This document shows positions 10,901-35,299 of a stretch of 64,000 nucleotides of DNA, piece after piece. The position numbers were made by a program, and so were the translations under genes. This stretch comes from Allacma fusca (lineage: Eukaryota > Arthropoda > Collembola > Symphypleona > Sminthuridae), in assembly GCA_947179485.1 (NCBI GenBank), contig CAMXBY010000055.1, positions 124,001 through 188,000 on the forward strand, given 5' to 3'. Each line of letters opens with the position of its first letter. The first letter of the stretch is position 1. The notes beneath the pieces are model-generated. The model searched no databases, was not told where the DNA came from, and saw only the letters and a list, made by a program, of their open reading frames with translations.

Positions 10901-13900
10901 GCTTCGATATCTGGAATATTGGTTTGAATTTTTAGAACAGAAATGATTTGCTCCGGTGAATTTTATTTGCAATCTTGCAATTCTTCTTTCAATAAATGTT
11001 TTGGGCATCCATTTCTCATTAATGTCATGCGTAATTGCTTCAATTATGTATCGGTGTATTTTTCATTACATATACTAACAATAAATGACTACTGTCTTTT
11101 TGTTTAAAAAAAAGTATTTCTATAGAAAATCCTGAGTTGCAATTTTTAAAGACAAATAGCTCGGTAAATTCGGAGTATTTACTTGTTTAATTTGAAGCAC
11201 ACAATGAATTACCGAATGCAATTTTAAAATAAAATCAAACTACTGCACTCTAAATTGCAGATATATTCCATTGAGTTGTTCGATTATTCTACATGCGAAA
11301 ATTCTTTGACAGAGAAAATACCGACTGGCGTTAAAGTTTAATATATTAAATAATTTTTATTCCAATAATCCCTCAATATCATTTACATATCACGACGGTC
11401 CCTTTATTTTGAACCATACGATAGTTGGAAAATATTCCAGAGGGAATCTTTCATCATACGTATCTATACATTACACTGCAGATACATTTTGAACGATGTG
11501 CAAGCTGTGAATATTTAGCAATTTACGTCCTAGATGAATTTTATTTTCTAATACTAACTTGCATGTCAAATCACATAAGAAATTTCATTTTTCGAATTCG
11601 AAATGTACAACTATCTAACCCTTCACTTTAAGGGGAAAATATTTTTAACGGCTTCAATGCCCAAATTTGTGCAGTCACAAAAATATTGTTGTTACTTTTA
11701 AAAGTGTCACACACGCATTTGCTCCTAAAGCTGAATTTCTTTACAGGTTTCGGTCATAATATAATATATGTTAATAGGAAATCAGAATGTACAATTTTTC
11801 CTTGATGAGATAATCTCTATTTTAAGTTTATGATTTAACTTATTTCTTCAGCAATCAAGTTTAACTGATAAGTTCCGAAGTTCATGACAAAAGGCAGTCA
11901 GTGGAGTCAAAGCTCAAATTATTTTGAATTTATATTAACCTTCAGAGAGCAAAATCCTAAACTTCCCCCAGTTGGTAGAAAAATCCTTCGCAAATTATCT
12001 TAAATTATGTTCAATTTCGTTTGCTCAAAATCCAGTTGGAAGTCACTCAAAAATTAATAGTTTCCCCCAATTGTTTTAATGACCCGTTTTATAAGGCTGG
12101 GGGCAAACCAGGGCTTAGTTTAACTGTTTACTAAAATGTAGACTTTTTTTAGTTAATTTTCCCGTATATTTTGTAAGATTCTTGCATTCAGAAAAAAATT
12201 CGAGTCTACATGAACTGAACGTCCGTTATTGTTGAGATTGAGACTCTATTGCATTGCTAAGCGAATTCGACTTATAACTATCTAAGGTTGAATTCTCTGA
12301 GACGAAAGAAATAGTTATCTGGCGTGAAAGCGAACTCAAATACACCAAACCATTTTCATTTTCTAAATCAGCATCATCTATGTCTGCAGCACATGCGTAA
12401 TTTATTCTAATTCTAGTTAATTTCAAAGCTTAATATATTTATTTTAACTATCTTTAATTTTTTATCAATTTGAAGTCACAATAATTATCTCTTGCTGGTG
12501 TTTTATTTTGTAAATTTCTTGAGTTCAGAAAGAGTTGAAAGTCAACACTAATTGTAAGTGCACGACTGACAGTGCTAAAACTACAATGGTTTAAGAAACA
12601 GAGGAATTGTGAACTTTGAAAAACCCAAATTCTCGAGAAACATCAAATAAGTATCTGGCGTGAAAGTGAAGTCTTAAAAAACCAATAAATTTTCATTTTC
12701 TAAATCAGCATTGCCTTACAATTAGTGGTAGGAAAGGTGTGTGTGACCCGGCGTGTTTCTAACTGTCTGCAGCATACGCGTAACTTATTGTAATTTTAAT
12801 TAAATTCAAAGTTCAATATACCGGTTTTGATTGTCGTTAACTTTGAGTAAAACAATTTGGAAACTAGATAATTATCTTTTGATGGTATTTAGGTCATGCG
12901 AATTATCACTAAATATTTATTTTTAATTAACTATATGTACGTTACATTCTCAAAGTACAGGTTCTTTCAAAGCTGAAACTGATGTTACAGGAAATTATAA
13001 AGAACTTACATTGTGGAGCGGATTTTGAAAAAAGCAACGGGACAATTGTAGTCGGCATTTTTTAGAGTTCAAGTTGCCAATATTTTATTTTAATTTTCCT
13101 CTTTTACTCCTTTACTATAAAGACGGGTAGAAATTGTGCCCGGGATTTATTATGGATTTATATTTTTACTTTATTATTGTTTTTAAACTAAAATTTTCAC
13201 AAAATTGGAAAAATAAATTCTGTCTAGTAAGTTCAGCTAAGTTTGTGTCTAGTAAGAAGCAAAAGTATTTTCAAATGAATATATTTTGTTCTGTATATCG
13301 ATAAAATTAATTTTTCTTCAAGTATAATGACTTTAAGGAGGTGATTAGTAGTGTGACTAGTATTTTGAAACATTTTTAAAATATCAAAAAATACTTTGAA
13401 TGAACATTTAGCTTTTAGTAGGAATAATTGTGCAAGCGAAGCAAATAATTACCTGTATCTTTTGATGGAACAACCTCACGTGCTACTAAATGTGTACGAA
13501 CTGTAACGACGATCTTACCGAAATGTAGTATAAAAAATAGTAACATATTAAGAAAATGATAAAATATATTTTATTATCTGATTTTACTTGTGCAGTACAG
13601 ATCTTTCGGCAAATTCACAGCCCCTTTATGTAAAACCTACGACTTTATGACGGATTAACGGGATAATTGTAGTTGACATTTTTACTCCAGTCCAAGTAAA
13701 ACCAACATATTATTATTATATATAATATTTAAAAAGAACATACTTTTGCTTAAAAATCGTTCAGAAATTCTGTCACATTTTTGTCATGATATATATTTTT
13801 AAAACAATTATAGCTACAATTATTGTAACTAGAATGCATTTTTATAATAAAACAAACCACTGTGCTTAAATAAACGGATTTGCAGTGTTTAGTTTTCCAT

Positions 13901-17009: not shown

Positions 17010-17013
17010 AGAA

Positions 17014-17342
17014 TGTCAGGATTGACTTTCCTAATTCTAATTAAATAACTAAAATATAACTAATAGTCTCTGAAATTATGAAAGACTAGACTTGAGACGA
17101 GGATAATCGTAATTATGAGAGCGCACCAAATGTAAAAATAATGTGGAGAGGAGGCTCAAGTGTGGAGCGTTCGAGTTCTTGTGAGAGACCTCCTTTATTC
17201 CTTATAGCCATCGTCCAGCAGGACTCAACCTGAAGTGGAGGATGATTGGAACTCCCAGTTCCAATCACCCCACTTCCCCTTAAATATATATAAGTATGGG
17301 AGTACTTGTACTCCCATAAGGATGTGTGAGACCCCTCTCACA
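17014..17342 (-). repeat. 3' LTR of the Gypsy element
   Basis: This copy appears identical to 34,967-35,295. Read on the minus strand it starts TGTGAGAGG and ends CCTGACA. A TATA-like stretch lies near 17,281-17,295, about 50 bases from the LTR start, so U3 would be very short. A polyadenylation-like AATAAA falls further in, near 17,192-17,197 on the minus strand. Three hairpins follow one another between 17,243 and 17,342 (arms of 11, 11 and 7 bp). Confidence 0.95.
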
Positions 17343-17355
17343 TTTTCCCCCCACC
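17343..17355 (-). other. Polypurine tract
   Basis: Read on the minus strand this is GGTGGGGGGAAAA, directly abutting the start of the 3' LTR. That is where the plus-strand primer of LTR retroelements lies. It fixes the orientation and the LTR boundary. Confidence 0.85.
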
Positions 17356-17596
17356 AGGGGAATGAGTCGACCCCGACTCATGGCGGTGGAGATACAGACA
17401 TGTGCATAAACAGATACAGATATGTAGCAATATACATATAAAGGTAAATATAATCACAAAAAATGGGGCAATGGGCCACTAAAGATTTGAAAACAAACAA
17501 AAATTGGAGGATATAAATCCAAAAAGAATGATAAAGAATTAATATGTTCCCCTCAGATACAAAAGCTACAAAATTCACACATTACAACCTACAGAA

Positions 17597-17941
17597 TTAC
17601 TCAAGATTCAACATGAAATGCGCCCGGTGACGTATAGAGCGTAGACGATGGTAGATTTGACGTAATAAGATTAATTCTGCCCTGCGAGTCTGGACCTGAG
17701 ATAATGAGATGATGAGTGTCTGCAAAGGCAGAAGTTGATCCGCAGGGGGAGAATGAGAAAAGGAAGTTGAATTCCCGGTTTGCCCCGACAAATAGGATCT
17801 TATGAGGTGTATGAATTCATCACATTGGGCTACGCACATAAACCACTGGGTAGTAGTGATGAGATGATTCAAAATGTAGGTCTTGCTCTGGATCATCTCG
17901 ACGTCAGCCTGTGTGAGGTGAGGGGGAGCCGTAGAAGCCAT
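17597..17941 (-). CDS. Small accessory ORF of the Gypsy element (114 aa, unknown)
   Basis: The last ORF before the 3' LTR, 114 residues starting MASTAPPHLTQADVEMIQSK. I do not recognise it. It has no signal peptide, no clear membrane segment and no cysteine pattern. It looks mostly helical, with a leucine-rich C-terminal half and a basic stretch near residues 95-110 (RQIYHRLRSIRHR). The start codon is preceded on the minus strand by a good splice acceptor (TTCCTTATATTTCAG, ending at 17,950), which suggests expression from a spliced RNA. Its position matches that of accessory genes in complex retroelements. That it is a real gene is inferred from the acceptor, the unbroken frame and its place within a young element. 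Confidence 0.55.
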   Translation of the reverse strand: MASTAPPHLTQADVEMIQSKTYILNHLITTTQWFMCVAQCDEFIHLIRSYLSGQTGNSTSFSHSPPADQLLPLQTLIISLSQVQTRRAELILLRQIYHRLRSIRHRAHFMLNLE

Positions 17942-17949
17942 CTGCAGTC

Positions 17950-17964
17950 CTGAAATATAAGGAA
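17950..17964 (-). promoter_or_regulatory. Candidate splice acceptor for the 114-aa ORF
   Basis: On the minus strand a pyrimidine-rich TTCCTTATATTTCAG lies 8 bases upstream of the ATG at 17,941. With the strong donor in the leader (34,541) it could form a subgenomic spliced RNA. This is inferred from sequence only. Confidence 0.5.
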
Positions 17965-18433
17965 AACATAAAATTAATTGACGAATAAATGTAACTAATT
18001 CCCTATAACACCAAAAATTAACACGAGCCCATGAATTACGAATGTGGGAGTAGTAAAAATAATGAAGTATAAGCAGCGGAGATTCGGTGATTTACCTACC
18101 CAAATAAAATACAAATGTTCTCAAATATTAATGAGACTTGGCTGAGAAGTAACTAGATTAATTAGAGTAATAATAACGGGAACAGTAATGTATTGATACA
18201 AGGAGCTGTTGAAGAATGAGACAGTGGAAAGGGAGCAAGGTCTTATATAGGCCCACAAAAATGACCCCATATTAAGTTAAATTATTACAAAGGCAATAAA
18301 CGTTTAGTGATTGTGTCCTAAACGTTAACAGGTTGACACAAAAATAGGAATTAACTTGTAAGAGAAAGAGTTCAAAATGTTCAAGGATGAGGGGAGAGGG
18401 AGAAGGGAGAACAAAGTGACATGAGGAGGATCG

Positions 18434-19516
18434 CTACTTTGGAGCAGAAGGGGAGGCGGAGTTATTTCCAGCAATAGTTAACCCCTGAAATGGATGCTCG
18501 GAAGCCAAGTAGTAGTTGATTCCTAACATGAGAAAACGTTCCTTTAGGAGAGTCAGCTGTGATGGAGGAACGGAGATTCGTCCGTCATACAGGAACGTCC
18601 ATAATAGCTCCAATATGGCTGGATCACAGTCTGGCCAATCCAATGTTGTTATGGGATCTTTATCACGGTCTTGAAAATATATGGCCAGGGCTGTCGAGCT
18701 TGCCACAAGTACAAGCTTGTGGAATAATTTGAAATGTCCATGGGCTGCCGTAATTGTAATCTCTGGTGGTTGGTTACCCATCAAAGTGCGGAATGTAGGG
18801 CCGTTGTACCATGGCTCATTTAGAATAAATTGTGATGAGGGTGTCTGGATGGAGGGAACATCGGAAAATGAAGCAGCGAACAAATCCCGTGGAGATAGGT
18901 GAGAAGCTGCATGTTTCATTTTCGCCAATAATCTCTCAGCCTTAGCGATGTAGACTTGAACTTGCTCCAATTTCTCCTCAGTAGTACCAAGCGATGTTGA
19001 AGATGTGGAGATGTTTTTGGGGCATTTATTTAGTAAATGTTCTTTAGTGGCACAGGAGAAGCAAAAAGTGTCAGGGAGAGTATGAGGCTTCAATGTGAAG
19101 ATTCTGGTTAAAATCAAGAATCTTGGCCATCCCGAATGAGGGGTGTGGTTGCGGAGGTTGTTTAAATCTTGGATCAAAGAGGCCGTAGTATACTCCTCGT
19201 CAATGGACACCGTGGTGCGGGTGTCAAAGATTTTGATTCCCAGCAAATGATGTGAATCAGAGTCTGTTAAGAGTAAATAATACTCAAACCATTCATTCCG
19301 GTAATCGTGGAGAAGAAGCTCTGTGGGAATCAAGGAAACTAGAGTATCTTGAGTTTCTCGGAGAAGTCTTTGGAGTAGGGGGGAATCGGTCGGTGAAAGT
19401 GTATGAGAAAAAACATCCTCCTTCCTAATGCGAGCTTCGATCTGGTCTCGTACGACCCGGTTACCAATTCTGGATGGCAAGATTTTCTTCCCCTTCCATA
19501 AAAGCTGTTGGGCCAT
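18434..19516 (-). CDS. Accessory ORF with CCHC zinc knuckle and BTB/POZ-like domain (360 aa)
   Basis: A 360-residue ORF between pol and the 3' LTR, where other Gypsy elements carry env. There is no signal peptide or membrane anchor, so it is not an envelope. Residues 152-165 form a perfect C-x2-C-x4-H-x4-C zinc knuckle (FCFSCATKEHLLNKC). Residues ~180-203 are charged and helical, possibly coiled coil. Residues ~245-345 follow the BTB/POZ pattern: a strand pair, then FHKLVLVASS (equivalent to the HKxxLAAxS signature), then a DPAILELLWTFLYDGR block matching the family's F-x-x-LL-x-F-LY-x-G pattern, then a helix with LLKERFLMLGI. I infer a nucleic-acid-binding, self-associating nuclear protein. 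The ATG follows a splice acceptor by 9 bases. The BTB call is by eye; an unrelated helical fold is possible. Confidence 0.7.
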   Translation of the reverse strand: MAQQLLWKGKKILPSRIGNRVVRDQIEARIRKEDVFSHTLSPTDSPLLQRLLRETQDTLVSLIPTELLLHDYRNEWFEYYLLLTDSDSHHLLGIKIFDTRTTVSIDEEYTTASLIQDLNNLRNHTPHSGWPRFLILTRIFTLKPHTLPDTFCFSCATKEHLLNKCPKNISTSSTSLGTTEEKLEQVQVYIAKAERLLAKMKHAASHLSPRDLFAASFSDVPSIQTPSSQFILNEPWYNGPTFRTLMGNQPPEITITAAHGHFKLFHKLVLVASSTALAIYFQDRDKDPITTLDWPDCDPAILELLWTFLYDGRISVPPSQLTLLKERFLMLGINYYLASEHPFQGLTIAGNNSASPSAPK

Positions 19517-19525
19517 AATTAATAG

Positions 19526-19541
19526 CTACAAAAGAATTAAC
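19526..19541 (-). promoter_or_regulatory. Candidate splice acceptor for the CCHC-BTB ORF
   Basis: On the minus strand TTAATTCTTTTGTAG, with its AG at 19,526-19,527, lies just upstream of the ATG at 19,516. A pyrimidine-rich tract runs right up to the AG. It fits expression of this ORF from a spliced RNA, as known for env of Gypsy-type elements. Confidence 0.5.
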
Positions 19542-20703
19542 AATTAAATTATGCTTTTGTCAGATCCTCAAAATTACCCCCCAAAGTGTGCACCACTACA
19601 CATCACACTGTATATCGAAGCTGTGTATATTTTGTAAAAATTAACTTACAATATGGGCGGCTGAACCAAACAGATTAAGAACAGATTCAAGGAGGAAGAA
19701 GTCCAAAGGGAATCAATTGATGACAGTAAGACTTATTAGGAGAGCAGAAAGAGACCTTCTAACTGAAGTTGGAGACCACGACTGAGGATGGATTCGAAGA
19801 GTAAGATATGGTTTTAGAACTTTAAGAATTTTGACCCCACAATTATCTCCCAAATGAAATAGCAGAGCTATTGAATAGTTTGAATAATTTGAATTGTAAA
19901 ATAAATTGGAGATAGTATTTGTGGGTCGAAATTATCGTGGTCTCAGAATAGCTGTAGGATTAGGATAATGATTCTAAAGATTTTAACATATTTTAACTGA
20001 AGGGTCCTAACAGCTATTTTTAGGAATGTGGAGGTTAATATTCATATTGGTCTCAGTCTAACTCCCCATAACTTTTAACATGCCCATCACCAACGATTCT
20101 GGACTCTAATCTTTAAGAAATTATGAAGAAAGGTAGGAGGCTATCTTCAAAAGGGAAATATTTGAAAAGGAAAGATAGTGTCAGAATCAAACATCGATTC
20201 TGACTCTTGATTCAGCCGTGTGTATTGGGCCCTAAATATGTGTAAGGAGTATTGGAAAGTGAATGTATAATTTGTGTGTGTTGTCTTATCACATTTAAAT
20301 TTTAAATATTCCTACGATGGTATTTTACCCTCAATTGAACTATCTCAAAAGTACCATTTGTCTTGGCAATTATTTAGCATACATTTAATTATTCCCTGTA
20401 GTGTTATTCAGGAATTTTGGGATAAGGATTTGAGAGTAAGGAAAGTTTAATTTATTCCTCAGTCAACCTCTTAATAATATTCATAAAATGTCATTATTTA
20501 TCCTGCATATAATGTCCAAGCTCCATTCCCTGATATTCTGATTCCTCTACTCCTTCAAAAACAACACAATTAATTACCTCAATTACTTGTGTAAGTGACC
20601 ACCGAATCTCCGATTACCATACCATAAACCTGAGTAGTATTTTAACTGGCATATAAATAAATAAAGAACCAGGTGATACTCATAAAGGGTTTACCACCCC
20701 TTC
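19542..20703 (-). other. Non-coding spacer between pol and the accessory ORFs
   Basis: About 1.2 kb of AT-rich sequence inside the retroelement, after the end of the pol extension. I see no ORF of note and no recognisable signal apart from the acceptor at its far end. Confidence 0.5.
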
Positions 20704-23700
20704 TTATTTCCTTCTCTTTTCCCGAAAGTCAGGGGCTTGATGAGGGACAGTTTGCGTCCTCTGTCGGCCACCACGCCTAAGCTCCGCGGGCCTAACTTCG
20801 GAGGATTGAGGGCTCCCTCTATAATTCCTATGTGCTACAGCTGTAGCAGCAGGACGGGCTGGAATTAAATTTAATTCCATGTCGGAATCTGATGATGCAT
20901 GTTTTTTCTTTTTGCGACCCTTTCCAGAACGTTTGAACCCACTAGAGACTAGAGATGGATCGTGAGAAGTCGTGGTAGACTTGGAAGTTTCCTCATGATG
21001 CCCCTTTATTTGAGCGTCCGTGGGAGTTGGGCAACTTCTGGAGCTCTTCTTAAATTCAGGAGGTGGAGTCTCGGCTATGGTCCTTGGAGGATTTTTAACA
21101 AACCCTGGGCCAACAGTAGGAAGTCCACTCTTCCAAGGATTGGACTCCGCTGTCCTTCCCCCCGGCAATGGGCATTGACCGCCTCGGTCAATGGAAGGAT
21201 TGATTGGTCCATCAGTAGGGAAATGCTGTATAAGAGGAAAAATATTATTATTTGTACTTTTTAATAAAGTATTTGTACCCTCTACCGCTGGCATCAAAAT
21301 TTTATGTGAAGCCGTTAAAGAGGAGTCAGAGGGAGTCAATGTTGGACTAGTAATGTTAGTCCGTGATTGAGTAAATGTAGGGCTAGTTATGGTAACCCTA
21401 TTTGGACTTACATCTTGAGCGTAAGTCTTAATTAAATTATTATTTACAGGACTGATTTCAGTAGGAATCAGCGTAGATTTAGTATTTAGTACTTCAGAGG
21501 TACTAATAAATGAAGAAGCACCTGCATGGAACTCAGGTGGCTCGGTGGAATGTGTAACAGAATCATGATCTGTTGTAACGGAACAAACTGGTGATTGGGA
21601 GGATTTGCCAGTATTTAAAGTATTAGCATATGGACTTACAACCTTAGCGTAAGTCATAACGGGAGAAGCGGACTTAAGAGTCGCTGTGACAGGACTTAAT
21701 TTAATATTAATAGTATGGGCGGTTTTAACAACCTCTGATACAGGGCTAACTGCCTGTGCGTATGTTTTAACAGGGCTGGAAGATACTATGTTCGCCAGAA
21801 TGGGTTTTGACAACTGACTATGAGACTTAATTGGTTCGAAAGTCTCAGTAATATTACTGGCTAAATTAATGTTAACAGCTTTAAGTGCTGTACTAGGACT
21901 GACAACTTGAGCGTAAGTTTTGACTGGCGTCAGTGGTATAGGGACAGTGTGTACTGTCGGCCGGTTAACCTGATTGAGGCTATTGACTAATTGACCTGAG
22001 TTTAAGTTTTTATCGGGACTTAAGAGGTTGTGAAACGTCCCGGGTGTACTTAAAAGTACAGGGGCACTCTTATTTAAATTAACAGGTTGTTGGGAGGAAA
22101 TACTGGAGGCATTAGAGGCGGAGCGACTGAGAATGTCCGCATAAGAAATGCCTTTGACTACTAAAGAACCTGCACTTTTATCGGGAGGAGTCTTAATGGG
22201 CGGGACTACAAATTCAGGACCTTGGAAAATGTTACAAGTCAACCTTTTTGGAATTGACTGAGAGGATTGATCCGTATCAGACCCTGGTGATTCTCGAAAT
22301 CTTTTACGAATCTTAATTTGAGACTTTTGCAATTGAACTGAGTCCCTAGACTCCGAAATTCGAGTAGGAGTGACAGTCATATTTGTGTTGACTCGGGCTG
22401 GCATATTTCCTTCGATGGATGGGAGATCTTGGCGAGGTAATCTGTGAGGTGTCCAATCCATCTTGGGAGGAGTAATAAACGAATCTACGTTTGTTTCGCC
22501 TGAGTCAACAAAAACCTTTGGGACTGTCAGAGTGTCGGTAGGGCTCTGACGATTTACTGGGGATTTACCTACATCTGGAATAATAGGAGAGACATTTATT
22601 TCAGAGCTTTGACTTTGAGCATTAGTGTTAGATAAATTTAAAATATCCTGCGTAGAGGAATGAAATACGCGTGTCCCAGAGGTTGCGGGTAACACTTCAG
22701 GTGAGGATGCAGGTGTAACTAGCTCATTCTCCGAGCCTACGGCGGATGTGAAGAAGTCCACAGTGGAATTGTAAGTACATCTCTCAGAGATGGTGGATAG
22801 TGTAGGAGTATCCACTTTATTGGAAGGACATGTTGAATCCAATGGCTGAAGAAATTCCTCCGGAATTGGTATTACTTGTGGTTTCTGTAATAGTATGACG
22901 TCAGCAGACTCCGGACTTGTAGGGATAATTTTGTAATCCACACTAGCAGGCTGTGGTGTCATATCTAAGGAAACGGAATTAAAGTTTTCAATTAAATTTG
23001 AGCATAAATTAGATGTAAACTCAGCACTAGTGTCAAGTGTAGATGCTTCCATTGCGGGATCAAACGGAGAATAAATCTGCGAATTAATTATTGACGATAA
23101 ATTCTCAAGAGAATTTTCGTCGAAATCACTCAGCCTAGCGGTTTTGGGGCAAGCTGGGGTTACGAACGTAAAGGAGTCAGATGGTGACGTAATTACAATA
23201 TGGGGACCGGGAGATGAAACCATAAGTTCCGGTACTGTTAATTCCGGAGGACAAGGAAATATTGGATCATTACCTTGTACCTGTGAATTAACGGTGATCA
23301 CCTCTGACTTTGGAGGGGACAAGAATGGATTGGGCAATATCGATGAGAGTTCGATACTCTCAGAACTAGTAGAAGGTGAAATGACTTCCACGGTGGGTAT
23401 TTGAAAATTAGTACCAGTTAATGTACTACAATCCGTATTGGTCAAAATCTTTTCCGCCTCAATATAGTGTACTATTAGGGGCAAAGCATCTCGAGATTGC
23501 TCACAATTAGCAGATTCTAAGGATTCCTGTTCATTAATTATAGGAGTACGGATACAAATGGGAGTTGGTGAAATACTTTTACTCTCTATGTTTTGTATAG
23601 GAATGGGCGGAGTGTCTCGAGACCTCTCAGATATTACGGGAGTTAAAGATTCTAGCTCATTAACTATTGGAGTAGGGATACTAATGACAGTAGGAGAGAT

Positions 23701-25900
23701 AGTGTTACTCTCTGTGACTTGTATAGGAATTGGCGTAGCGACTGGAAATCCTATGGACTTTACAGGTTTTAAATTTTCCGGTTCACTAATTAATGAAGTC
23801 GGAGTACAAACAGGAGTGGGAGAAATAATTTCTCTCCCAATAACTTCGGTTAGTTGAGGCGAAGCAGCTGTTACTTGGGAGATCAAAGCTGTGTGAGCAT
23901 CGGGTTCAGTCGTAATTGTAAGCTGATTACTAATGACTGGAGGAGAAATTATTTCTCTCTCAATAACATGTGATATTAGGGGTAATACAACATTAAGTAC
24001 TTCAGAAGGGATAGGAGCTACAATATCTAATACGTCGGAGATTGTAGTTCGAGTATTAACGTCAATAGGAGAGATTATGGCTTTCTCAGTTTGTAGGGGC
24101 AAAGTGACATTGGGAAGCACTTTGGAATTTAACGTTATAGAAGGATCCTTTACACTAGGAATTTCCGTCAAAGGGATTACAGCAGGAGGAGAAATAATTT
24201 CTCTATCAGAAAATTGCATTGGTATAGGCGAAGTAACATTGGGTACTACGGGAATCAAAGCTTCAGTAGCACTAGGTGTACTGACTAATGTAATCTGAGT
24301 GTTAGTAGGAGGAGAAATTATTTCTTCTCCAATGACGAGTGGTTGATACGGTAAATCTACATTGGGAATTACATCCAGAATTAATTCTTTGGAAATATCC
24401 TGTACACTGGGTATTTCAGTTAGATTAATGACTGCAGGAGGAGAAATAATTTCTTTCCTAATTATATGTGTATTTAGGGGAGAAGCATCATTAAGTACTT
24501 CCGGTATTGCAGAGGTTAATGTTTCCTGCTCTTTGGGTATATCTACATCGCTAGATACTAATTGGGAATGAGGAAATAGTGTTTTCCTCACATGAGCCGT
24601 GAGTTCATCAAAAAAGTCAGTAATGCTTTTTTGAGGAACTACCGACGATTTAGAACTCTGTTGTAAAGTCACATGAGAATGAAACTCATCCGAGGGAAGT
24701 TCTAAAGGTGTATTGAACATTGTGGGCTCTGTATTCAAAATGCTATCAGTGAAATTACTATTAGTAACATTATCCGAGGAATTATTAGGAGTCAAAAATG
24801 GCGGACTGGAGTCACCACTGGTATCATGATTCAAATGATAATTATTTGACTCATCAAAAAGACGGGGCATTGTTTCGGGACTTATATTAGTCATAACAGA
24901 GTCTTCATTGGAGGAATTGGGACTTGTTACAAAAATGAGTGGGTTCACGAGAGAGTGTACAGAGTTAACACCATCGGGACATGACTTTGGAGAATTAATT
25001 GAAATTCCTGAGACTGCTATAGGTTCAGGGTCTGGTGGTAATAAGGGTGTTGGGGTTGGAGTTATTATCAGAGGAGCGGTCTCTTGAGCAACGTGCGAGA
25101 CTTTAGATCGCGTTTGTACAGGGGACCGTAAAGTTTCTCGAGCCGTAGTTTTAGGCGGAACATAATCATCTGGAGACGTGACATTTGTACGGCCTTTCTT
25201 GCGCCTGCGAGGTATACGTGGACCAAACCGTGGTATATCGTTCTGGGTTAGTGGAACTTCGGGCATAGGTTCGTTACGGATTTGAAAATACTCCTCAGTC
25301 TGTATGTCATTCTGGAGAGCCGCAAAGATATCATCAGCGTTAGGAACAACACGATCATTATCAGCGCTATCTAAATTATTGAGAGCATTAGAATTCATAT
25401 TATTGTCAACATTATTTATAAGATCATGATTAGCATGAATAATAACATCATTTATAGCTCGCGATTTTGATCTAGTTATTATAGGAGATCGGATAATAGT
25501 TTCCGTGGAGGATGAAGGAGGTCGATATGACTCTTGGGAAGAATTAGAAGACCTCTCACAATCAGCATTGGAATCATCATTTAGATTACTTAATGATGAA
25601 TTCAATACAGGGTTGGGAGGAGTCGGAGAGTCAATTTGTGACACCATTGGATCAACAGAATTCAAGCGAGAAGGATCTTGGTAAATGTCAATAATTTGAC
25701 AGGGTTCTGTAATACTCGGGGCATACGTTCGAAGCCTATTAACCCAGTTAGAGTCATGGTCATTTGACGAGGTTACGGAGGAGCCAAAAGGAACAATAAC
25801 AGGCTCTCTAGGAGGAAGTGGCGGAGGGACATCAATAGTGCGATGTTCGGGACGTATCTCTTCAACAGAATTATGGTGGGCATAATCGTGAAGAATTTTG
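20704..25900 (-). other. Giant Ser/Thr/Pro-rich extension downstream of integrase
   Basis: About 1,700 residues follow the integrase in the same reading, far longer than any usual Gypsy tail. It is low in hydrophobic runs and rich in S, T, P, N and I, so it is probably disordered. It contains a block of ~41-residue repeats (23,560-24,560), four or five copies of a TYAxxVSP motif (about 21.4-22.2 kb), and a bipartite nuclear-localisation-like patch IRKRFRESPGS near 22,300. The C-terminus is very basic and starts near KGRKKKKHASSDSD. I recognise no enzymatic domain. It may be a nuclear targeting or chromatin-tethering tail, or a scaffold; this is inference. Confidence 0.75.
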
Positions 25901-28900
25901 TGTGTGAAAACATCAGCGTAGTCATCTTGCCATGACACTGGAGGGCGGAATGGCTTCATATTATGAGAATGGACCCTCCGAATACGGTGCTTGGCCCGTT
26001 TGGTTCCACGGTATTCTACGACAAAGGAATTAATGCCACAAACTTCCACAATTTGGTATGATCCGATCCAATATAGTTGGAGACCTCGTCGGACTTTATC
26101 TGCAATCCAAACTAAATCACCAAGTACAAAATTATGTGCCTTACGATTTTTATTGAATTTTTCAGCTCTTTTGTGCTGTTCATTAGTTGTATTTAAGTTA
26201 GCTTGAGTGACACGTTCTTTTCGAGAACTTTCACGTTGTTCGGGAGTTTGGGGCTCTATGGTAGTAATTACGGGGGTTACGAGATCCAACTTTGTTTTAG
26301 GATGGACAGCATAAACCAAACTAAATGGGGAGAATTTTGTTATTGCATGTACGTGCATGTTATGTGACTTGCAAGCTTTACCTAAATATTCATCCCAATT
26401 ATCCCTTTGGGCAGATACATATTTTCTAATGTACCGTTTGATTTCGGCATTATTCCTCTCAATATTTCCATTAGAGGAGGGGTGATTAGGCATTATTTTA
26501 ATATGAATTACGCCATGTTTTTGTAAAAATTGGACAAACTCAATGGCTGTAAAATGGGGGCCATTGTCCGTAACAATGAATGGAACAACACCGATTTGTT
26601 CGAAAATTAACTTTTTCACCCATTTACAAGAATCTAGAGCAGTGTTAGTGGGACTAGCCGCTGCCCACGCAAATCGACTAGTGTGGTCAATAGCCACAAA
26701 AATATATTTATTACCGGACCTAGAAGTAGGGTCAATAGGGCCCACATAGTCCACTGCTATACGGGTAAAGACTTCCTCAGGAGGGGAAACAATTTTCATT
26801 AGACCGAGTGGCTTGGTAGTAGCCGGGTTAGCCACCTGACAGGTAGGACAACCCTGTATATAATTAAGGACATCCTTTGGCATCCCTTTCCAATAATACC
26901 GACGGTAGAGTTCCTGATAGGTCTTATAAATGCCTACATGGCCTCCATCAAGCGCATCATTATGGGCTAACTTCAGAATTGCTCCACGGAGAGATTTAGG
27001 CACCACAAGTTTGTAGGGGTCCACAGAGCGTTTATCAAGTCTAAATAATAACCCTTGAATCAAAGTAAAATGTTTAGACAAGCCATTTACATTATTTCCA
27101 GTACATTGATTAGGTACTTGTAACTTGTGAATGATAGTTTTCAAATGATCATCATTATTTTGATGTTCGATAAATTCATCAATATTACCACCAATTATAG
27201 CATGGACATTAGGTTCTCCTTCAACATTTGTTTGAGAGGGAATTATTGTTAAAGAGCGTAAAGGATACCGAGACAAACAATCAGCATGCGGGATATTTTT
27301 GCCCGGAACATGTATGATTTCCTTATCTTGTTGGGCTAGCTTTATTTGCCAACGAGCTATCCTGGAGTGAGGGTCCTTCATAGTACAGAGGGATGTGAGA
27401 GCAGCATTGTCAGTGCGGACCTGAATTCTCCTTCCATAAATGTAAGGCCTAAAAACCTCAAAAGCATACACAATAGCTAAACATTCCTTTTCGGGATTAG
27501 AATAATTTAGTTCAGCTCCTTTTAATAACCTAGAGGCAAATGCAATGGGCCTCCAGATTTTACCATCCCTGGATTGTTCACAGGTAGCTCCTATGCGATA
27601 TCCGCTCGCATCAGAGACGATTCGGATGGAAGCTTCAGCATCAAAATAATCTAAAACAGGAGCATTAACCATGGCATCTTTTAGAGCTTGGAAGGTTGTT
27701 TCCTCCTCTTCACCCCATACAAATGGAACATCCTTCTTAGGTTATGCAGAGGTCTGGCTTTACCTGCAAAATCTTTAATGAAAGTACGATAATAATTACA
27801 GAAGCCCAGAAATGACTGGACTTCTTTGAGACATTTAGGACTGGGGAATACTCTGACAGCTTCAATTTTCTCGGGATCAGGATTGGTTCCTTCTCCAGAA
27901 ATGACGTGTCCTAGAAAGTGCAATTCATTAAAGGCAAAATAGCATTTCTTAACTTTAAATGTTAAATTGAACTTTTGAGCACGCATTAGGACAAGTTCAA
28001 GACGATACATGAGCGTATCAAAATCATTAGCAAAAATTAGTAAATCATCAATATAGACTAATACAATTGTATATTTTAAATCACCAAGTACGGTGTCCAT
28101 CATTGTTTGGTATACAGCTGGCGAATTTTTATATCCAAATGGTAGTCTATTGTAACAAAACTTACCCTTTGGAGTGGAGAAGGCAGTTTTCAACTGACTT
28201 TTTTCATCCAATCTCATTTGGAGGAAGCCCTGTAGTGCATCAAGCGTGATGAACCACTTTGCCCCAGCCAGGTAGTCCAGGCAGTCATCAACCCTAGGAA
28301 TTGGGTAGGTGTCCTGTTCCACCTGGTCGTTTAGGAGGCGAAGGTCCACACATACTCGATGTGTGACAATTCCCTGGTCGTCCTTCTTTTTGGGGACCAC
28401 TATGACCGGGGAGTTGTACGGAGAGACGCAGGGCCGGATGACTCCAAGGCGTAAGTTCCTTTCCACATGTTCCTCGAGGACCTTCTTTTCTAGAGGTGCC
28501 AAACGGTAGGAATATTTGTGGAAGGGTGGATGATCTCCTGTATCTATAACAACTGGAGGATAGTTAACAACACCAAGCTCATCATCGCTACGAGCAAAGT
28601 ATTCAGCATATTTATTAATTATCATTAGCACATGTTCTTGTTGTGATTCATTAATGTTAGGACCCATTTTTATTTCATTTTTATTGTAGGGAGACTTCGG
28701 AGCTTTTGCCGTAAGTTCTTCGACCTGTAAATGAAATTTCTGTTGGGGAATAACTTCAGAATTCTTATTAGACATGTTGAGATAATTGTTTTCATTGCTA
28801 AATCTTATTGTTTGCATTAAATTAGTGCTTGGTTCCGTTAAACATGATTCATCAGTAATTATTGAAGGAGAAGGTAGTACCTGAGAGTCCTCTTCTGTCG

Positions 28901-30011
28901 AGTCTCCCTTATTTAAGGCGTTTACCTGATTGTTATGATTATTATTGATAATTTGATTTTTACGTAATATTCTTGATTGAAGCTCATGACTACGTTTATC
29001 ATGAACGTCTGGATGCTCTTCAGGATCTCTTGATGATTCTAGAGAGTCGGTAAAAGGAGCGTCTAAGTCGCGTGTGCTCCATTCGCTGTCCGTGGGGATC
29101 CACATGTGTTCTGAATCATAATGTCCCACTTTGTCCTCATTAGCTGTCCCATTGGGTCCTTCGTATTCAACTAAAGATGCATGAGAATTTAAATTAAGTC
29201 CAAACCTACGGTTGAAATTACTTCCTAATAACAGAAGTGTATCCATCTCTTCTATGATGGCAAACCTATAATTGTGACCTAAATGTTCATCTCTTTTAGT
29301 ATAGAAATACAAAATAGCCGAACGACAATAAGATCCAGACTGGGTTTTGCATATAGTAGTAAAAGACTTAGGTTCATGAGTTACTATTTTGATACTCTTA
29401 GGGCAGTATTTATTTAAATAGTAAGCAGTGGCGGCCGCCATGGAGGATAACATTGAGCCAGTATCCACTGTAGCTCTAAGAGTCACCCTATGTCCGGCCA
29501 CACGCAAGGGATAAACCACATCCTGGCGTGCGTAGGTCAAATTACAGAGGCGGAGAAATTCTTGAATCATGATTTCATCATGAGAGAGAGTCTCTTCCTC
29601 CGGTGAGAGCCCATGGGGTTGGACTTCCTCAGAATCCAGAGACCTACAACTGGAAAGTGCACGTAATGACATACGGTTACGTGGCTTTAAATATAATTTA
29701 TTAATGATATTAGAGGAATCTTCTAATTCGTCATCCTCCAATGTGGGAAGAGGTCGGGGAGTCTCTTCCTTAAACCTGGTCTTCTTCTTCACCTTAACAG
29801 GAACAAGCGGGGGTGGTAGGTCCGGAATGTCATCGGGCATATCAATGATAACTTGTTGCTGTACTTGGGGTGTAGGAGGAACATCAGGTAGAAATTTATT
29901 GGGATCATAAACGCCATGGTATTGAGGAGTGTAGGAAGCATGCCGAACAGTTGGAACCTGAAAAGCTGGATGCGGAATGCTTAGTTGATGTTTATTAACT
30001 TGATTACTCAC
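20704..30011 (-). CDS. pol: pol of the Gypsy element with a giant C-terminal extension
   Basis: Domains in order along the minus strand: a retropepsin-type protease with the active site TVDTGSML near 29,465; reverse transcriptase from about 28.6 to 27.9 kb with LVYIDDLLIFAN near 28,045; RNase H from about 27.65 to 27.3 kb with IVSDASGYRIGA; and integrase from about 27.0 to 25.9 kb. The integrase has an HHCC zinc module (H-x7-H, then CPTC), the catalytic triad in IAVDYVG, IVTDNGPHF and GNIERNNAE, and a C-terminal GPY/F-like module around WIGSYQIVEV. The order RT-RNase H-integrase places it in Ty3/Gypsy. No chromodomain is evident. The reading then continues for about 1,700 residues of Ser/Thr/Pro-rich sequence. 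Expression probably depends on -1 recoding from gag. Overall it looks close to whole, with about one break. Confidence 0.93.
23560..24560 (-). repeat. Eight ~124-bp (41-residue) tandem coding repeats
   Basis: Eight degenerate units with their GGAGAAATAATTTCTC-like box near 23,566, 23,692, 23,816, 23,939, 24,066, 24,185, 24,309 and 24,437 give a period of about 124 bp. On the minus strand each box encodes a variant of REIISPP, followed by xxIxLTEIPS-like text. The period is a multiple of three within error and the frame is kept, so the repeat is under protein-level constraint or is recent. Confidence 0.8.
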
Positions 30012-30042
30012 CCTAACACTGGGTTTATGATTGTGAGGCTGG

Positions 30043-30083
30043 ATGGTCTGGTCGGCCCCGCCCGCCAGACCATTCAGTTTCCC
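30043..30083 (-). promoter_or_regulatory. Predicted -1 ribosomal frameshift signal at the gag-pol junction
   Basis: On the minus strand the heptamer GGGAAAC (30,077-30,083) is a canonical X-XXY-YYZ slippery site in the gag phase (GGA AAC). It is followed at once by the gag TGA and then by a hairpin with 9-bp perfect arms, ATGGTCTGG and CCAGACCAT (30,043-30,073), around a GC-rich loop. The protease-RT frame is -1 to gag, as such a site would deliver. Many Ty3/Gypsy elements use -1 recoding here. The spacer of 3 bases is shorter than the usual 5-9, a point against maximal efficiency. Confidence 0.8.
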
Positions 30084-31507
30084 GAAGTATTATTAATCGG
30101 GACTGAGGCTGGGGCTTCAGCGGGAGGGATCGGGCCATTCACCATTCCTTGGCGATCCTGACCATAGCCTCGGTTAACCCAATTCGGTTGTGGACCCTGA
30201 GAACGTTGTTGCTGGCCCTGGTATTGGGATTGTTGATTCCCGGGATATTGCGATTGTTGATTCCCTTGGTATTGAGGACTAGGACGAGGTCGTTGGTAAT
30301 TCGGGGAATTATTATCCGGGTGTTGATAATTCCGTTGAGGCGGAGGATTGTTGGACTGCCGATAATTCTCCAGAGACGGATAATTCTGCTGAGGAGGGTG
30401 CTCGTCAAAGTGCATCAGATCCGGCGGTTGTTGATGTTGCCTGGAATTGGCATTGTAACCCGAAGAATTCCAATTCCCGTTAGAATGCGCTGGTGAATGC
30501 TGGAAATTTCCCTGAGAGGATAAATCATTATTATAATTGGGACCTGGTGCCTGATTACCATTATGAAGGAAACGGGAATTACGCGTGTCCATGTTGGACA
30601 TGATGCGAGAGGTGTTACCATTCACCAAATCCCGCTGGAAATCCCTGCATTGCTTCCAGTGGTGATTACTGCGATTACAGTAATCACAAACCAACTGGTT
30701 AGCAGCCCTGACTGAACTCTCGTTCAGTTGTGGAGCCTGGGAAGCAGACGTGGAGGACCGAGACCGGGCATTATTGTCCATCGGCGTGTTCCTCAATAGT
30801 CCTCGGATGTTCTTGATGAACTCCGGGATGTTCCGGGACAGTGTGACGGCAAAGGAGTCGATGGATGGAGGCAGCTTCCCTCTAGCCTTTTCAATGATGG
30901 CATCATCCGTCATCCGGGGATCCAGATCCAGGCATAAATGTTGCAATTCCGCAACAAAAGAATCAGCGGACATCCCTGCTGTATATCGGAAGGAATCCAG
31001 GGCCGCCTGCTTCGCTGGCTTGAGGTTCTCATGGTCGAACCTCCGGATGAGACTGGAAGAGACAAACTTCCATATTTCCTTTGCAGGTTTTCCCATTTCC
31101 TCGTAGAGGCGGATCCTGGGAAATTCAGAGCGGAACCATTCCTGGACAGCCTTATCGGGAGACTTCTGGAAAAATTTCCTTAAGTTAAGGACCACGGAGT
31201 CAGGGCTGACGAACATGTCCTTAGAGTAGAAATCAACATGGCGGACGAAGGCCCGGGGGTCATCGTCGCTATAATATTGTTCGACTTCAGCCCGAAATCG
31301 ATCCAGTCTTCTGTACTTCTCGTCGGAAGACTTAGGATTCGGTGCCCCAAGAAGATCAGCAACAGGGACGTTCATCATGGACGGACCCAACATGGGTTGT
31401 TGAGTGAAAGGATCGGAATGTCCACTAAATTGTTGTGGTGGATTAGTGGAAGAACCAAAGAAATCCCCGAAAGGGTCAAACGATGTCCAAGCGGATTGTT
31501 GATCCAT
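30074..31507 (-). CDS. gag: gag of the Gypsy element (477 aa)
   Basis: A 477-residue ORF that starts MDQQSAWTSF. Residues ~65-245 are a helical, capsid-like region (for example IRLYEEMGKPAKEIWKFVSS and YTAGMSADSFVAELQHLCLD) of the retrotransposon-gag type. A single zinc knuckle C-x2-C-x4-H-x4-C lies at residues 274-287 (CDYCNRSNHHWKQC) and would bind genomic RNA. The C-terminal ~170 residues are a low-complexity Asn/Gln/Pro/Tyr tail with repeated YQGNQQSQY units. The ATG follows a splice acceptor by about 18 bases. The stop lies directly after a slippery heptamer, consistent with gag-pol recoding. Reverse-strand open frames across the tail are artefacts of its repeats. Confidence 0.93.
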   Translation of the reverse strand: MDQQSAWTSFDPFGDFFGSSTNPPQQFSGHSDPFTQQPMLGPSMMNVPVADLLGAPNPKSSDEKYRRLDRFRAEVEQYYSDDDPRAFVRHVDFYSKDMFVSPDSVVLNLRKFFQKSPDKAVQEWFRSEFPRIRLYEEMGKPAKEIWKFVSSSLIRRFDHENLKPAKQAALDSFRYTAGMSADSFVAELQHLCLDLDPRMTDDAIIEKARGKLPPSIDSFAVTLSRNIPEFIKNIRGLLRNTPMDNNARSRSSTSASQAPQLNESSVRAANQLVCDYCNRSNHHWKQCRDFQRDLVNGNTSRIMSNMDTRNSRFLHNGNQAPGPNYNNDLSSQGNFQHSPAHSNGNWNSSGYNANSRQHQQPPDLMHFDEHPPQQNYPSLENYRQSNNPPPQRNYQHPDNNSPNYQRPRPSPQYQGNQQSQYPGNQQSQYQGQQQRSQGPQPNWVNRGYGQDRQGMVNGPIPPAEAPASVPINNTSGN

Positions 31508-31525
31508 TGTTGAAATAGGCTGCGT

Positions 31526-31540
31526 CTAAAAAATTGCTAG
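31526..31540 (-). promoter_or_regulatory. Candidate splice acceptor upstream of gag
   Basis: On the minus strand CTAGCAATTTTTTAG ends at 31,526, about 18 bases before the gag ATG (31,507). Paired with the donor at 34,541 it would remove a ~3-kb leader intron. Inferred from sequence only. Confidence 0.45.
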
Positions 31541-34536
31541 CACTGACAAAGTTGTAATTTGAATAATTACAAAAACCTATAAAGGGATGATAATTAGGAA
31601 TCCAAAAGTGTCAATTAGAATTCAATTGTAAGTTGTAAGGCTCATAGGTATAATCAACTTTAATTTGAAAATGCAATGAATGCAAAGTGAGATTTGTGTA
31701 TTTAATGTGATGATGAATTATGATAAGTAATCACAGATGCTAAATAAGTAGTCACACAATAGTGAGTAGATAATATCAAAGGATCGACAGTCCTTGAGAT
31801 TATCATATGCAAAAAACTAGATATTATGTGAATGGGAATAGCGTCCAAAATTATCGAAAATTCAAACAAATTCAAAAAATATTGAATGATATCAGTAGCA
31901 TCACAAGCATGAAAAAATCAAAGTCAAAAAAAAATCCAAGATACCTACAATTGAAAATAATTCAAACACAAAACGTAAAAATTAATCAGTCTTTGTCAAT
32001 AGATTTACAAAATGATGATAAGTGTAGTAGCAATAATAATCAGTATTAGTCAAAATAGACCTGAAAGGAATATCCGCAGATAAATTATCAGTAGCGTCTC
32101 AACCTTGTGGAATACAAAGGCCGACCTCGGAGGAGTTGACCTCACAATCAGCACGGATTGTATGGGGAAGGTCTCAAAGCCTTATCTTGAATTGAAGAGG
32201 TAATGGACGGATGACCACGCCGAAAGTTGAAATCCAAAATGGCGGATCGTCAAAATTATGAATGTAAACCTCAAGAGCTCAAAAAAAAATACAAATGGAT
32301 TAGTGACCATGCATGAATTTCATATAATTCGTGATAATACGTGGTAGAATGCTGTAGAAAAAGTGGGCGATTAGATTTCCGAAATAAAATGTAAAGTAAA
32401 TAGTCCGTAATTAATTAATTTCTGAAAACTTAGCAAGGGGGTTGAGAAAGTGCGTGGATAATTGTTATGACCACAACGGAGAGGGGCTAAGTGGATGGAG
32501 ACAAAATAATTTCAAAAGTTCAATTAAATATTGAAATTATGAATGGTCTCGGACTAATTGTCAGGCAATGGTTAACGTATCGGCTCAGAGAATGGAATAT
32601 ACGTAGGGAGGATCACAGAGTATACGGAGGATATAAAAATTCAAGAGGAATGAATTTGGGAAGGGAGTGGAAAACAGTAATTGTTATTTTAAATAAATGC
32701 AATATAAAGGCTTTTCCTACGTATGGACTGTAGGTAGGTATACGGACTATACCACTGCACAGTAATTAATAGAGTTATAATGGATGACGGTGTCCTTCCT
32801 AAATTTCAAAAATTGGAATTTGGAAGAATAGACGAAATTCAAAAATAAATTCCAATATCAGAGACATATAACTGTGTGGGGTAGAGTGACTGCTGGAAAT
32901 GATACAGTAAGCAAGATGAATTGAATGAATAATAAGACGCTGAGGTATTATGAGACGGGTCATAAAAAAAATGACAAAGTTCAAAATAACTTCAAAATAA
33001 TTATTCACGCGTAGGGAGAAAAAAAAATATACGCGCGTACTAGGACAATAATAATCAGCCGTAACAGGCTATGAGATTCAGTGGCAAAAATAAATTCCCA
33101 AAATGAAATTGCATTAGTAAGTCCTATCGACCGTATGGACACTGGAGGAAAGTACGTAGAATTCCAAAATGCAAGAAGCTCATAAATTTCAAAAATTATT
33201 TTGAAGGGGCAACGTGAGGCTGTAATATTATTTCAAAAATAATAATGAAACCAAAATGAAAAAGTGGCAAAATAAATGCGGAGTCGAGGAGAGAATGTAC
33301 AAGGAAAAAAGAAATTACACTCGTAAGGTCTGTCGTCAGCACGTTCAAAATAAATGGCCAGAATAAATTGAGATTCCAAATTAATCCAAAAATAAATATG
33401 CCACGCTTCAAAATAAACTGAAATTTTGAAAGTGTGGAAATTCGGAAGACACTGTATAATGGGTGGATGTGGGAAGCAAAAATTGGAGCAAAAATAACTC
33501 AAAAAAAAATAAAGTGCAATTGTAAGTCTTTTCCTATCAATGGCCACAATTTAACATTACAGTGAATTTAACGAGTCGTAATAAGCTCTCAAAAACTTCC
33601 CAATATGAAATCCGATTGTTCAGAAAATCAAGCATGAATTCCAAAATTATTGGGAATTGGATGGAAAATTAGACTGGAAAATCGATTCAAAATTATAAGC
33701 CACAATTGTAAGGTTTCTCCGCCGTGTGGAGACACGCCGTGTGAGATGATAGCAGGTATTGGGCTGCAGGGGCAACGTGAGACCCAGCCAAGATTTTTCA
33801 AAAAAGTCCAAGAATTTCGAAAATTAAAGAACTGTGAGTAATTCTGACACCGGGATGAGATGGGTCAAAAATAAATGAAAATAAGAGTTCGGGGGGATAA
33901 TGACGCTGCACCTAGAATGCAATAAAATACTCAAGAAAGAAACGGCGTGGTCGCGGCGTGCGTGACCCAAAATATTAAATAGGACTGATATTAATTTTCT
34001 GAAGGCAATTGTTACTCCAAAATACTGAAAATTTCGACAAAACAATCACACCGAAATAAGAGTGCGTGAGGGGGAAAATAGTCCCGAATATAAATGAAAT
34101 TACTGTTCAGTATAAATAAAGTACGGTCCTTATAGCAAAGAAATAAACGGCGTGGTCGAAGCGTGCCTGGCTCAAAATAATAAAGAGAACGGAAATGAAT
34201 TTTGATCCCAAAAATTTCCACACAGAAAGTAAGGTAAAAACTCCGAAAATAAGTATACAAATGGAATGAGCAATAATTATTTGAAACGGCGAAGAAAATT
34301 GAGGATAATTCCCAAATCAGAACTTGAATGGTAGGAGAAAAAAAATCATGAAAGCATATACCAAAATACGAGAAAAATTACTCCAAAAATAAATCCGAAA
34401 ATAATTTCTGAATCACACTATCACTTTAGCATATAATATACTTAAAAACTGAACCATAAATTATTCAAAATAAGGTGCATGGTCAAAATAAATTCGGTGA
34501 GAAGGAGAGTGATTGAAATTCAAGTGATACATTCAC

Positions 34537-34961: not shown

Positions 34962-34966
34962 AAAAA

Positions 34967-35295
34967 TGTCAGGATTGACTTTCCTAATTCTAATTAAATA
35001 ACTAAAATATAACTAATAGTCTCTGAAATTATGAAAGACTAGACTTGAGACGAGGATAATCGTAATTATGAGAGCGCACCAAATGTAAAAATAATGTGGA
35101 GAGGAGGCTCAAGTGTGGAGCGTTCGAGTTCTTGTGAGAGACCTCCTTTATTCCTTATAGCCATCGTCCAGCAGGACTCAACCTGAAGTGGAGGATGATT
35201 GGAACTCCCAGTTCCAATCACCCCACTTCCCCTTAAATATATATAAGTATGGGAGTACTTGTACTCCCATAAGGATGTGTGAGACCCCTCTCACA
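34967..35295 (-). repeat. 5' LTR of the Gypsy element
   Basis: 329 bp, with no difference found on reading it against 17,014-17,342. On the minus strand it carries a TATA-like box about 50 bases from its start, the three consecutive hairpins and an AATAAA signal. It is the promoter copy for the element. It is followed on the high-coordinate side by the AGAA target duplication (35,296-35,299). Confidence 0.95.
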
Positions 35296-35299
35296 AGAA

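What the first reader, a model, noticed from the sequence alone, without database searches (positions are those of the whole stretch)
18434..19516. Retroelement-borne protein pairing a CCHC zinc knuckle with a BTB/POZ-like domain
Residues 152-165 form a perfect retroviral-type zinc knuckle. Residues ~245-345 follow the BTB pattern (FHKLVLVASS, then ELLWTFLYDG, then a final helix). I know of no Gypsy element that carries a BTB domain in the env position. BTB proteins in arthropods organise chromatin and insulators, so a captured BTB domain could act on host chromatin, on the element's own transcription, or on targeting.
Basis: partly seen in the sequence, partly recalled or inferred. Interest (0 to 1): 0.88.

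Follow-up and report, generated by a model that had tools for sequence, protein, structure and literature searches.

The report
Springtail retroelement gene with BTB domain
A family of virus-like jumping genes in a springtail genome carries, where an envelope gene would normally sit, a conserved gene joining a nucleic-acid-binding zinc knuckle to a BTB protein-protein contact domain that looks captured from the animal's own genes, which suggests these elements may plug into the host's nuclear machinery.

Summary
Confirmed and extended. The ORF at 19516..18434 (minus strand, 360 aa) has a CX2CX4HX4C knuckle (152-165) and a BTB/POZ domain (Pfam PF00651, 28.7 bits, cut-off 20.5). It lies 3' of integrase in an 18.3-kb Ty3/Gypsy-type element with identical 329-bp LTRs and a 4-bp target-site duplication. 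A database protein named Allacma fusca is encoded letter for letter by a paralogous copy here, so the host is almost certainly that springtail. The genome gives 113 matches to the ORF. In 18 of 18 nine-kb loci, integrase and/or pol tail precedes the BTB ORF. 31 of 31 aligned rows (30 distinct) hit BTB at E<=0.1; BTB codons are under purifying selection (omega 0.08-0.27, 10 pairs). Element BTBs form one clade (99/99), next to a host-like BTB exon (96/64, weaker): one capture is the simplest reading. A sister tier has a related gene without BTB. It is not an envelope. Most likely it is a multimerising nucleic-acid-binding adaptor; that function is inferred. Structure prediction was uninformative. 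Ten paper searches showed no such element.

The parts
17010..17013 (.). target-site duplication AGAA (low-coordinate side)
   Evidence: flanks printed
17014..17342 (-). 3' LTR, 329 bp, TGT...ACA read on the minus strand
   Evidence: identical to 34967-35295; the identical stretch is 331 bp, with two shared bases outside the TG...CA ends
17343..17355 (-). purine-rich tract abutting the 3' LTR (putative polypurine tract)
   Evidence: sequence; role inferred
17597..17941 (-). small downstream ORF, 114 aa, preceded by an acceptor-like TTTTCCTTATATTTCAG
   Evidence: present in 6 of 6 A/B/C loci displayed and in none of the 18 D-tier loci there; no Pfam match
18434..19516 (-). BTB ORF, 360 aa, in env position
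18509..18799 (-). BTB/POZ module (residues 240-336)
   Evidence: Pfam core 253-321; PDB profile matches about 249-341; host-like L057 aligns over 242-339
19022..19063 (-). CCHC zinc knuckle, residues 152-165
19526..19536 (-). splice-acceptor-like tract TTCTTTTGTAG, 9 nt before the start codon
   Evidence: sequence; use as an acceptor inferred
20704..27741 (-). RNase H + integrase ORF (stop to stop) with a ~1,700-residue low-complexity tail
   Evidence: Pfam RT_RNaseH 104.5, RT_RNaseH_2 103.4, Integrase_H2C2 70.5, rve 46.7 bits
27681..30089 (-). protease/reverse transcriptase ORF (stop to stop); frame broken before RNase H in this copy
   Evidence: RVT_1 98.7 bits; protease by position only
30074..31525 (-). 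gag ORF (stop to stop) with its own CCHC pattern, seen by eye
   Evidence: Retrotrans_gag 22.4 bits, just below cut-off 24.1; translation
34967..35295 (-). 5' LTR, 329 bp
35296..35299 (.). target-site duplication AGAA (high-coordinate side)

Best explanation
SHOWN: a Ty3/Gypsy-type LTR element family in a springtail (almost certainly Allacma fusca) carries a selected accessory gene 3' of pol that encodes an N-terminal domain of unknown fold, a CCHC knuckle, a linker and a BTB domain; the element BTBs form one clade and the nearest relative found is a host-like BTB exon, so a single capture of a host BTB is the simplest origin. INFERRED: the protein is made from a spliced subgenomic mRNA and works as a multimerising adaptor. 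The knuckle (and in one lineage a C-terminal C2H2-type finger) holds the element's RNA or DNA, while the BTB self-associates and docks on host BTB or corepressor/insulator proteins, so as to steer the element's expression, nuclear passage or insertion. It is not an envelope.
For: BTB by Pfam and by a PDB profile, with kinship to host BTBs. Element context: LTRs/TSD, gag/RT/RNase H/IN, order kept in 18 of 18 D-tier loci, 13 with integrase and 5 with pol tail in the 9 kb read. 113 matches in the genome, some loci split in two. Knuckle in 30 of 31 rows, CX2CX12HX3H in 4 of 31 rows, all one lineage. Purifying selection on BTB: omega 0.08-0.27, upper 95% bounds at most 0.57, in 10 of 10 bootstrapped pairs that I chose. 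An acidic residue at 252 and F265, H266, V269, L270, S274, W294, W306, Y310 in 31 of 31 rows. The BTB half is exchanged between lineages as a unit: window versus L008 37-68% nucleotide identity in 30-codon windows starting before residue 200 and 86-98% in later ones; a second case is L023/L029/L033. One clade with L057 next. Acceptor-like TTTGTAG before the ATG in 12 of 13 A/B/C copies.
Against: No transcript, protein or binding data. No confident fold model. The window protein alone finds no significant PDB match. Function is inferred from domain types. The best single-domain PDB match is KBTBD4, a CUL3-type BTB protein, which favours the CUL3 rival. K/R at 267, part of the usual BTB charged pocket (recalled), is S or F in 4 of 31 rows. 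The BTB-less sister tier shows that such elements can persist without BTB. L004 lacks the acceptor and D1 copies have only weak acceptor-like sequence. L057's place is weakly supported (SH-aLRT 64). All data are from one genome.
Confidence: 0.58

Rival explanations
1. The BTB is a CUL3 adaptor: the protein brings a host restriction factor, bound by its N-terminal half, to ubiquitin ligase CUL3, as BTB proteins of some large DNA viruses are thought to do (recalled).
For: The best single-domain match of the family profile in the PDB is KBTBD4 (31.6 bits for the domain); KLHL3 and SPOP also match (their CUL3 role is recalled). The chain ranked above it is a ZBTB17-BCL6 fusion whose score sums two weaker domains (15.1 and 18.0 bits).
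Against: No BACK, Kelch or MATH domain among families matched by the 31 rows at E<=0.1; BCL6 chains match at about 26 bits too; a knuckle is not expected of a substrate adaptor (inference).
Confidence: 0.25
2. A gag-like particle/RNP protein: the knuckle binds genomic RNA and the BTB gives multimerisation inside or next to the capsid.
For: The retroviral-type knuckle is kept in 30 of 31 rows.
Against: No similarity to the element's own gag (best BLASTP E 0.75 for the single comparison); no gag family among the six Pfam families matched by the 31 rows at E<=0.1.
Confidence: 0.2
3. A diverged envelope or membrane protein in the env slot.
For: Position 3' of integrase and acceptor-like sequence before the ATG.
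Against: Maximum 19-residue Kyte-Doolittle mean under 1.6 in 30 of 31 rows, the exception being the divergent tail of L029; no hydrophobic N-terminus in any row.
Confidence: 0.02
4. A passively carried host fragment without function.
For: A host-like BTB relative exists; some copies hold stops or are fragments.
Against: Purifying selection, open frames in lineages that share only about 31-36% protein identity with the window copy, constant position.
Confidence: 0.04

Closest known systems
Ty3/Gypsy LTR retrotransposons with a third ORF (Drosophila gypsy and errantiviruses with env; recalled)
   Same: gag-pol-ORF3 order, LTRs, probable spliced ORF3 mRNA
   Different: ORF3 is a knuckle-BTB protein without hydrophobic segments, not a membrane fusogen
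Bdelloid rotifer Juno/Vesta elements with non-envelope ORF3 (DEDDy exonuclease, GDSL esterase); PMC5408684, passages read
   Same: LTR elements that hold a non-envelope domain in ORF3, shared between lineages
   Different: enzymes rather than a protein-interaction domain; the word BTB does not occur in that paper's main text
Phalaenopsis Gypsy elements with an AlkB-like 2-ODD ORF; PMC9289625, abstract and outline read
   Same: large Gypsy elements (25 kb) with an extra domain like those of host proteins
   Different: an RNA demethylase; plant host
MDG1-group sORF1/sORF2; PMC11952523, passages read
   Same: accessory ORFs beside gag-pol in arthropod LTR elements
   Different: sORF2 is a short transmembrane protein likened to fusogens; BTB was not looked for in that paper
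Host BTB-zinc-finger proteins and the BTB insulator proteins Mod(mdg4)/CP190 of Drosophila; PMC5666082 and PMC9723646, listing abstracts only
   Same: BTB combined with nucleic-acid-binding modules or partners; lineage D2 also has a C2H2-type finger
   Different: encoded by the host; BTB usually N-terminal (recalled), here C-terminal and joined to a CCHC knuckle
ZBTB11 with an integrase-like HHCC finger; PMC5384227, passages read
   Same: a BTB protein combined with a retroelement-type zinc module
   Different: a host gene, with an integrase-type and not a nucleocapsid-type finger

Membership tests
Ty3/Gypsy-type LTR retrotransposon | two LTRs TG...CA with target-site duplication | tested here: met
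   identical 329-bp LTRs, AGAA duplication
Ty3/Gypsy-type LTR retrotransposon | domain order RT-RNase H-integrase | tested here: met
   Pfam RVT_1, RT_RNaseH, H2C2, rve in that order along the minus strand
Ty3/Gypsy-type LTR retrotransposon | placement in a named Gypsy clade by an RT tree | not tested
   no named reference set was at hand; only the nearest pol hits were listed
BTB/POZ domain (PF00651) | profile match above the curated cut-off | tested here: met
   28.7 against 20.5 bits in the window copy, 32.6 in P0001, 27.3 in L020; L026 and L036 below it
BTB/POZ domain (PF00651) | BTB fold | tested here: inconclusive
   pLDDT 55, no reliable fold match
CCHC zinc knuckle | CX2CX4HX4C | tested here: met
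   30 of 31 rows; Pfam zf-CCHC reported for only 2 of 31 rows at E<=0.1, below its cut-off in P0001
Retroviral/errantiviral envelope | signal peptide and transmembrane segment | tested here: not met
   hydropathy scan only, 30 of 31 rows under 1.6
BTB-ZF (ZBTB) transcription factor | BTB plus C2H2 finger array | tested here: not met
   one C2H2-pattern finger in 4 of 31 rows, below Pfam cut-offs in the two scanned; none in the window copy
CUL3 substrate adaptor | CUL3 binding | not testable with these tools
   needs a binding assay

The most novel reading that the evidence does not exclude
A retroelement lineage that captured a host BTB once and turned it into its own chromatin/insulator adaptor: the protein holds element nucleic acid through the knuckle (and C2H2-type finger) and joins host BTB assemblies, so that the element brings its own regulatory or integration-targeting factor, with the BTB module traded between lineages by recombination.
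Probability: 0.25. Interest if true: 0.9.

Novelty: new variant of a known kind. Interest (0 to 1): 0.74.

Why it matters
In flies, host BTB proteins (Mod(mdg4), CP190) are recruited by Su(Hw), the protein of the gypsy insulator (listing abstract PMC5666082; the gypsy link is recalled). An element that encodes its own BTB would turn that relationship round and give a natural tool to study how elements act on host chromatin. It also adds a protein-interaction module, with a candidate donor-kin locus and a BTB-less sister tier for comparison, to the domains that LTR elements have captured.

Tried and rejected

Cross-species conservation: P0001 (Allacma fusca) first looked like a homologue in another species; one search showed that it is encoded exactly in this genome (L022), so that reading was dropped. 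No homologue from any other species was found (these searches need shared 5-residue words and similar length), none in viral contigs or phage records. No other springtail genome was searched, so how widespread the gene is remains untested.

An integrase piece found no relative in viral contigs. Gag-derived origin of the ORF: no support. Whether BTB was gained after, or lost in, the BTB-less tier: unresolved. Equivalence of the small 114-aa ORF to the larger downstream ORF of D-tier elements: alignable only weakly, not claimed.

Rows dropped: of the fetched loci with a BTB-ORF match, L012 (start codon lost) and the broken or partial copies L005-L007, L009, L010, L019, L038 were left out of A2; P0001 was left out of the trees as a duplicate of L022; L029 was left out of the BTB profile for its divergent tail; the BTB tree used 13 of the 29 profile rows. 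Of 14 chosen pairs, three have saturated synonymous sites in BTB; of the other eleven (omega 0.08-0.27) ten were bootstrapped. Of 20 fetched BTB pieces, L058 and L064 did not reach the element profile. A first tree lacked the host rows by a script fault and was replaced; one search stopped with an error and was replaced.

Full report
What is there. The window is C60:124001-188000 of a 392.7-Mb assembly in 91 contigs. The surrounding element runs from 17014 to 35295 on the minus strand (18,282 bp): 329-bp LTRs identical over their whole length, flanked by AGAA on both sides (read from the flanks), a purine-rich tract beside the 3' LTR, gag at 31525-30074, an RT ORF at 30089-27681, RNase H plus integrase at 27741-20704 with a long low-complexity tail, the BTB ORF, and a 114-aa ORF at 17941-17597. 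The pol reading frame is broken between RT and RNase H in this copy; in locus L033 the two matches lie in one frame. Identical LTRs suggest a recent insertion, gene conversion aside.

Host. The only database homologue of the ORF is P0001, annotated Allacma fusca (1 of 2,329 candidates at E<=1; 1 of 6,985 at E<=10). Locus L022 of this assembly encodes P0001 letter for letter, so the window is almost certainly from that springtail, and P0001 is a paralogue within the same genome, not evidence of conservation between species.

The BTB domain is real. Pfam PF00651 scores 28.7 bits (cut-off 20.5) over residues 253-321. 31 of 31 rows of alignment A2 (30 distinct) match PF00651 at E<=0.1. The A2 profile finds BTB proteins in the PDB: best whole-sequence E 6.1e-8 for a ZBTB17-BCL6 fusion that sums two domains, best single domain KBTBD4 (31.6 bits). 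The window protein alone finds nothing significant there (best E 0.51). A profile of 29 element BTBs matches 18 of 20 BTB pieces fetched from the same genome; three of these (L065, L066, L057) are close, the plain host ones score 37 bits and below (E-values there are for that small set). The knuckle pattern is present in 30 of 31 rows; L002 has lost one cysteine. Structure prediction gave low confidence and neither supports nor contradicts BTB.

It is a gene family of the element. The genome has 113 matches to the ORF at E<=1e-3, some loci split in two, in tiers of about 95-100%, 63-68% (with a few mosaic or partial copies up to 84%), 55% and 32-39% identity, and a remote tier that matches only the N-terminal part. 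In 18 of 18 loci fetched at about 9 kb, integrase (13) or the pol tail (5) lies upstream of the BTB ORF; for two of the five, L022 and L026, integrase was then seen further upstream (L046, L047). By hand comparison of coordinates, 40 of the rows listed (153 BTB matches in all, list cut) are copies of this ORF. Between close copies, BTB omega is 0.08-0.27 in 10 of 10 bootstrapped pairs, with upper 95% bounds from 0.16 to 0.57.

Modules move. Window-type and L008-type copies are 37-68% identical at the DNA level in windows starting before residue 200 and 86-98% in those after it; L029 and L033 share N-termini but not BTBs, and L023 and L033 the reverse. Separate trees of the two halves disagree in the same way: the window's nearest N-terminal kin outside its own group is at path length 1.47, while its BTB lies 0.038 from that of L011. 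The BTB half therefore behaves as an exchangeable unit.

Architecture variants. Lineage D2 (L026, L027, L032, L036) adds a C-terminal CX2CX12HX3H finger after the BTB (zf-C2H2 scores below cut-off in the two scanned). A sister tier (L039-L043) has a related N-terminal domain, a cysteine-rich variant of the knuckle and, in three of five, a similar C2H2 pattern; none of the three members scanned matches BTB. In the two of these loci where upstream DNA was fetched, it carries an integrase 61-64% identical to the window's. Ten matches to this BTB-less ORF cover at least 276 of its 303 residues, eight of them without stops. The integrase tree does not resolve whether this tier split off before BTB was gained or lost it.

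Origin of the BTB. In a tree of 13 element BTBs, 2 element fragments and 16 other BTBs of the same genome, the 15 element rows form one side of a branch with support 99/99; the next row is L057 (C8:47020513-47020812), support 96/64. The 16 are a choice among 153 matches. L057 scores 60.5 bits against PF00651, aligns to the window protein over residues 242-339 at 31% identity including the segment F-X-TLMGNQP in front of the BTB core, follows an acceptor-like TTTCCTTTCCCCAG and ends at its own stop. It looks like the last exon of a host gene and is the best candidate for kin of the donor, though a domesticated element piece is not excluded. A search for further copies of it did not complete.

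Mechanism. Shown: position, conservation within the genome, purifying selection, domain content, lack of long hydrophobic segments. Inferred: expression from a spliced mRNA (acceptor-like TTTGTAG before the ATG in 12 of 13 A/B/C copies, an acceptor-like GCAG in 4 of 4 D2 copies, weaker in D1), nucleic-acid binding by the knuckle, self-association and host contacts by the BTB. Of the host contacts, chromatin/insulator or corepressor BTB proteins fit the zinc modules best; CUL3 (the best single PDB domain is of that type) and particle roles remain open. I give the anatomy and the family reading about 0.95, a single BTB capture about 0.75 and the nuclear adaptor role about 0.4-0.45; the overall figure of 0.58 reflects the mix.

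Novelty. Ten full-text searches of the open PMC library listed no title or abstract on a BTB domain in an LTR element; several lists were capped (for example 20 of 127, 15 of 300, 10 of 22), so a passing mention could be missed. Four papers that hold both kinds of terms were opened by passages: their BTB mentions concern host proteins, a reference title, or a Crypton-derived host gene. Subscription papers and Repbase entries were not searchable. Extra ORFs in LTR elements are a known kind (PMC5408684 passages, PMC9289625 abstract, PMC11952523 passages), so this is a new variant of a known kind.

Noticed in passing
L021:6248-7504(+), L022:6244-7482(+), L023:1320-2849(-), L026:1894-3177(-), L034:1418-2809(-): D-tier elements carry a second accessory ORF (413-510 aa stop to stop) downstream of the BTB ORF, related between lineages, with a conserved C-terminal Cys/His cluster in four of the five aligned; no convincing Pfam match in five scanned and no PDB match for the one searched.
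   Followed up: partly
window 20704-25881 (-): The integrase ORF continues into a ~1,700-residue Ser/Pro/Thr-rich tail with repeated EIISPP-type units; parts of the tail are recognisable in other lineages.
   Followed up: partly
window 27681-27741 (-): The pol frame of this copy is broken between RT and RNase H although its LTRs are identical; an assembly error is not excluded.
   Followed up: no
window 31526-34966 (-): Long (3.4 kb) leader between 5' LTR and gag; two stop-to-stop ORFs of 121 and 129 aa there have no Pfam match.
   Followed up: no
L060, L062, L067 (C1:27511721, C10:10520281, C1:27661898): Near-identical short BTB frames at dispersed sites, two of the three with a stop: another repeated BTB sequence in this genome.
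   Followed up: no
window 54664-56161 (+): Adjoining hydrophobic open stretches that look by eye like exons of a multi-membrane-span (chemoreceptor-like) protein; no Pfam family above cut-off.
   Followed up: partly
window 12075-12180 and 35625-35730: Similar (82%) direct repeats on either side of the element, probably from an older repeat family.
   Followed up: no
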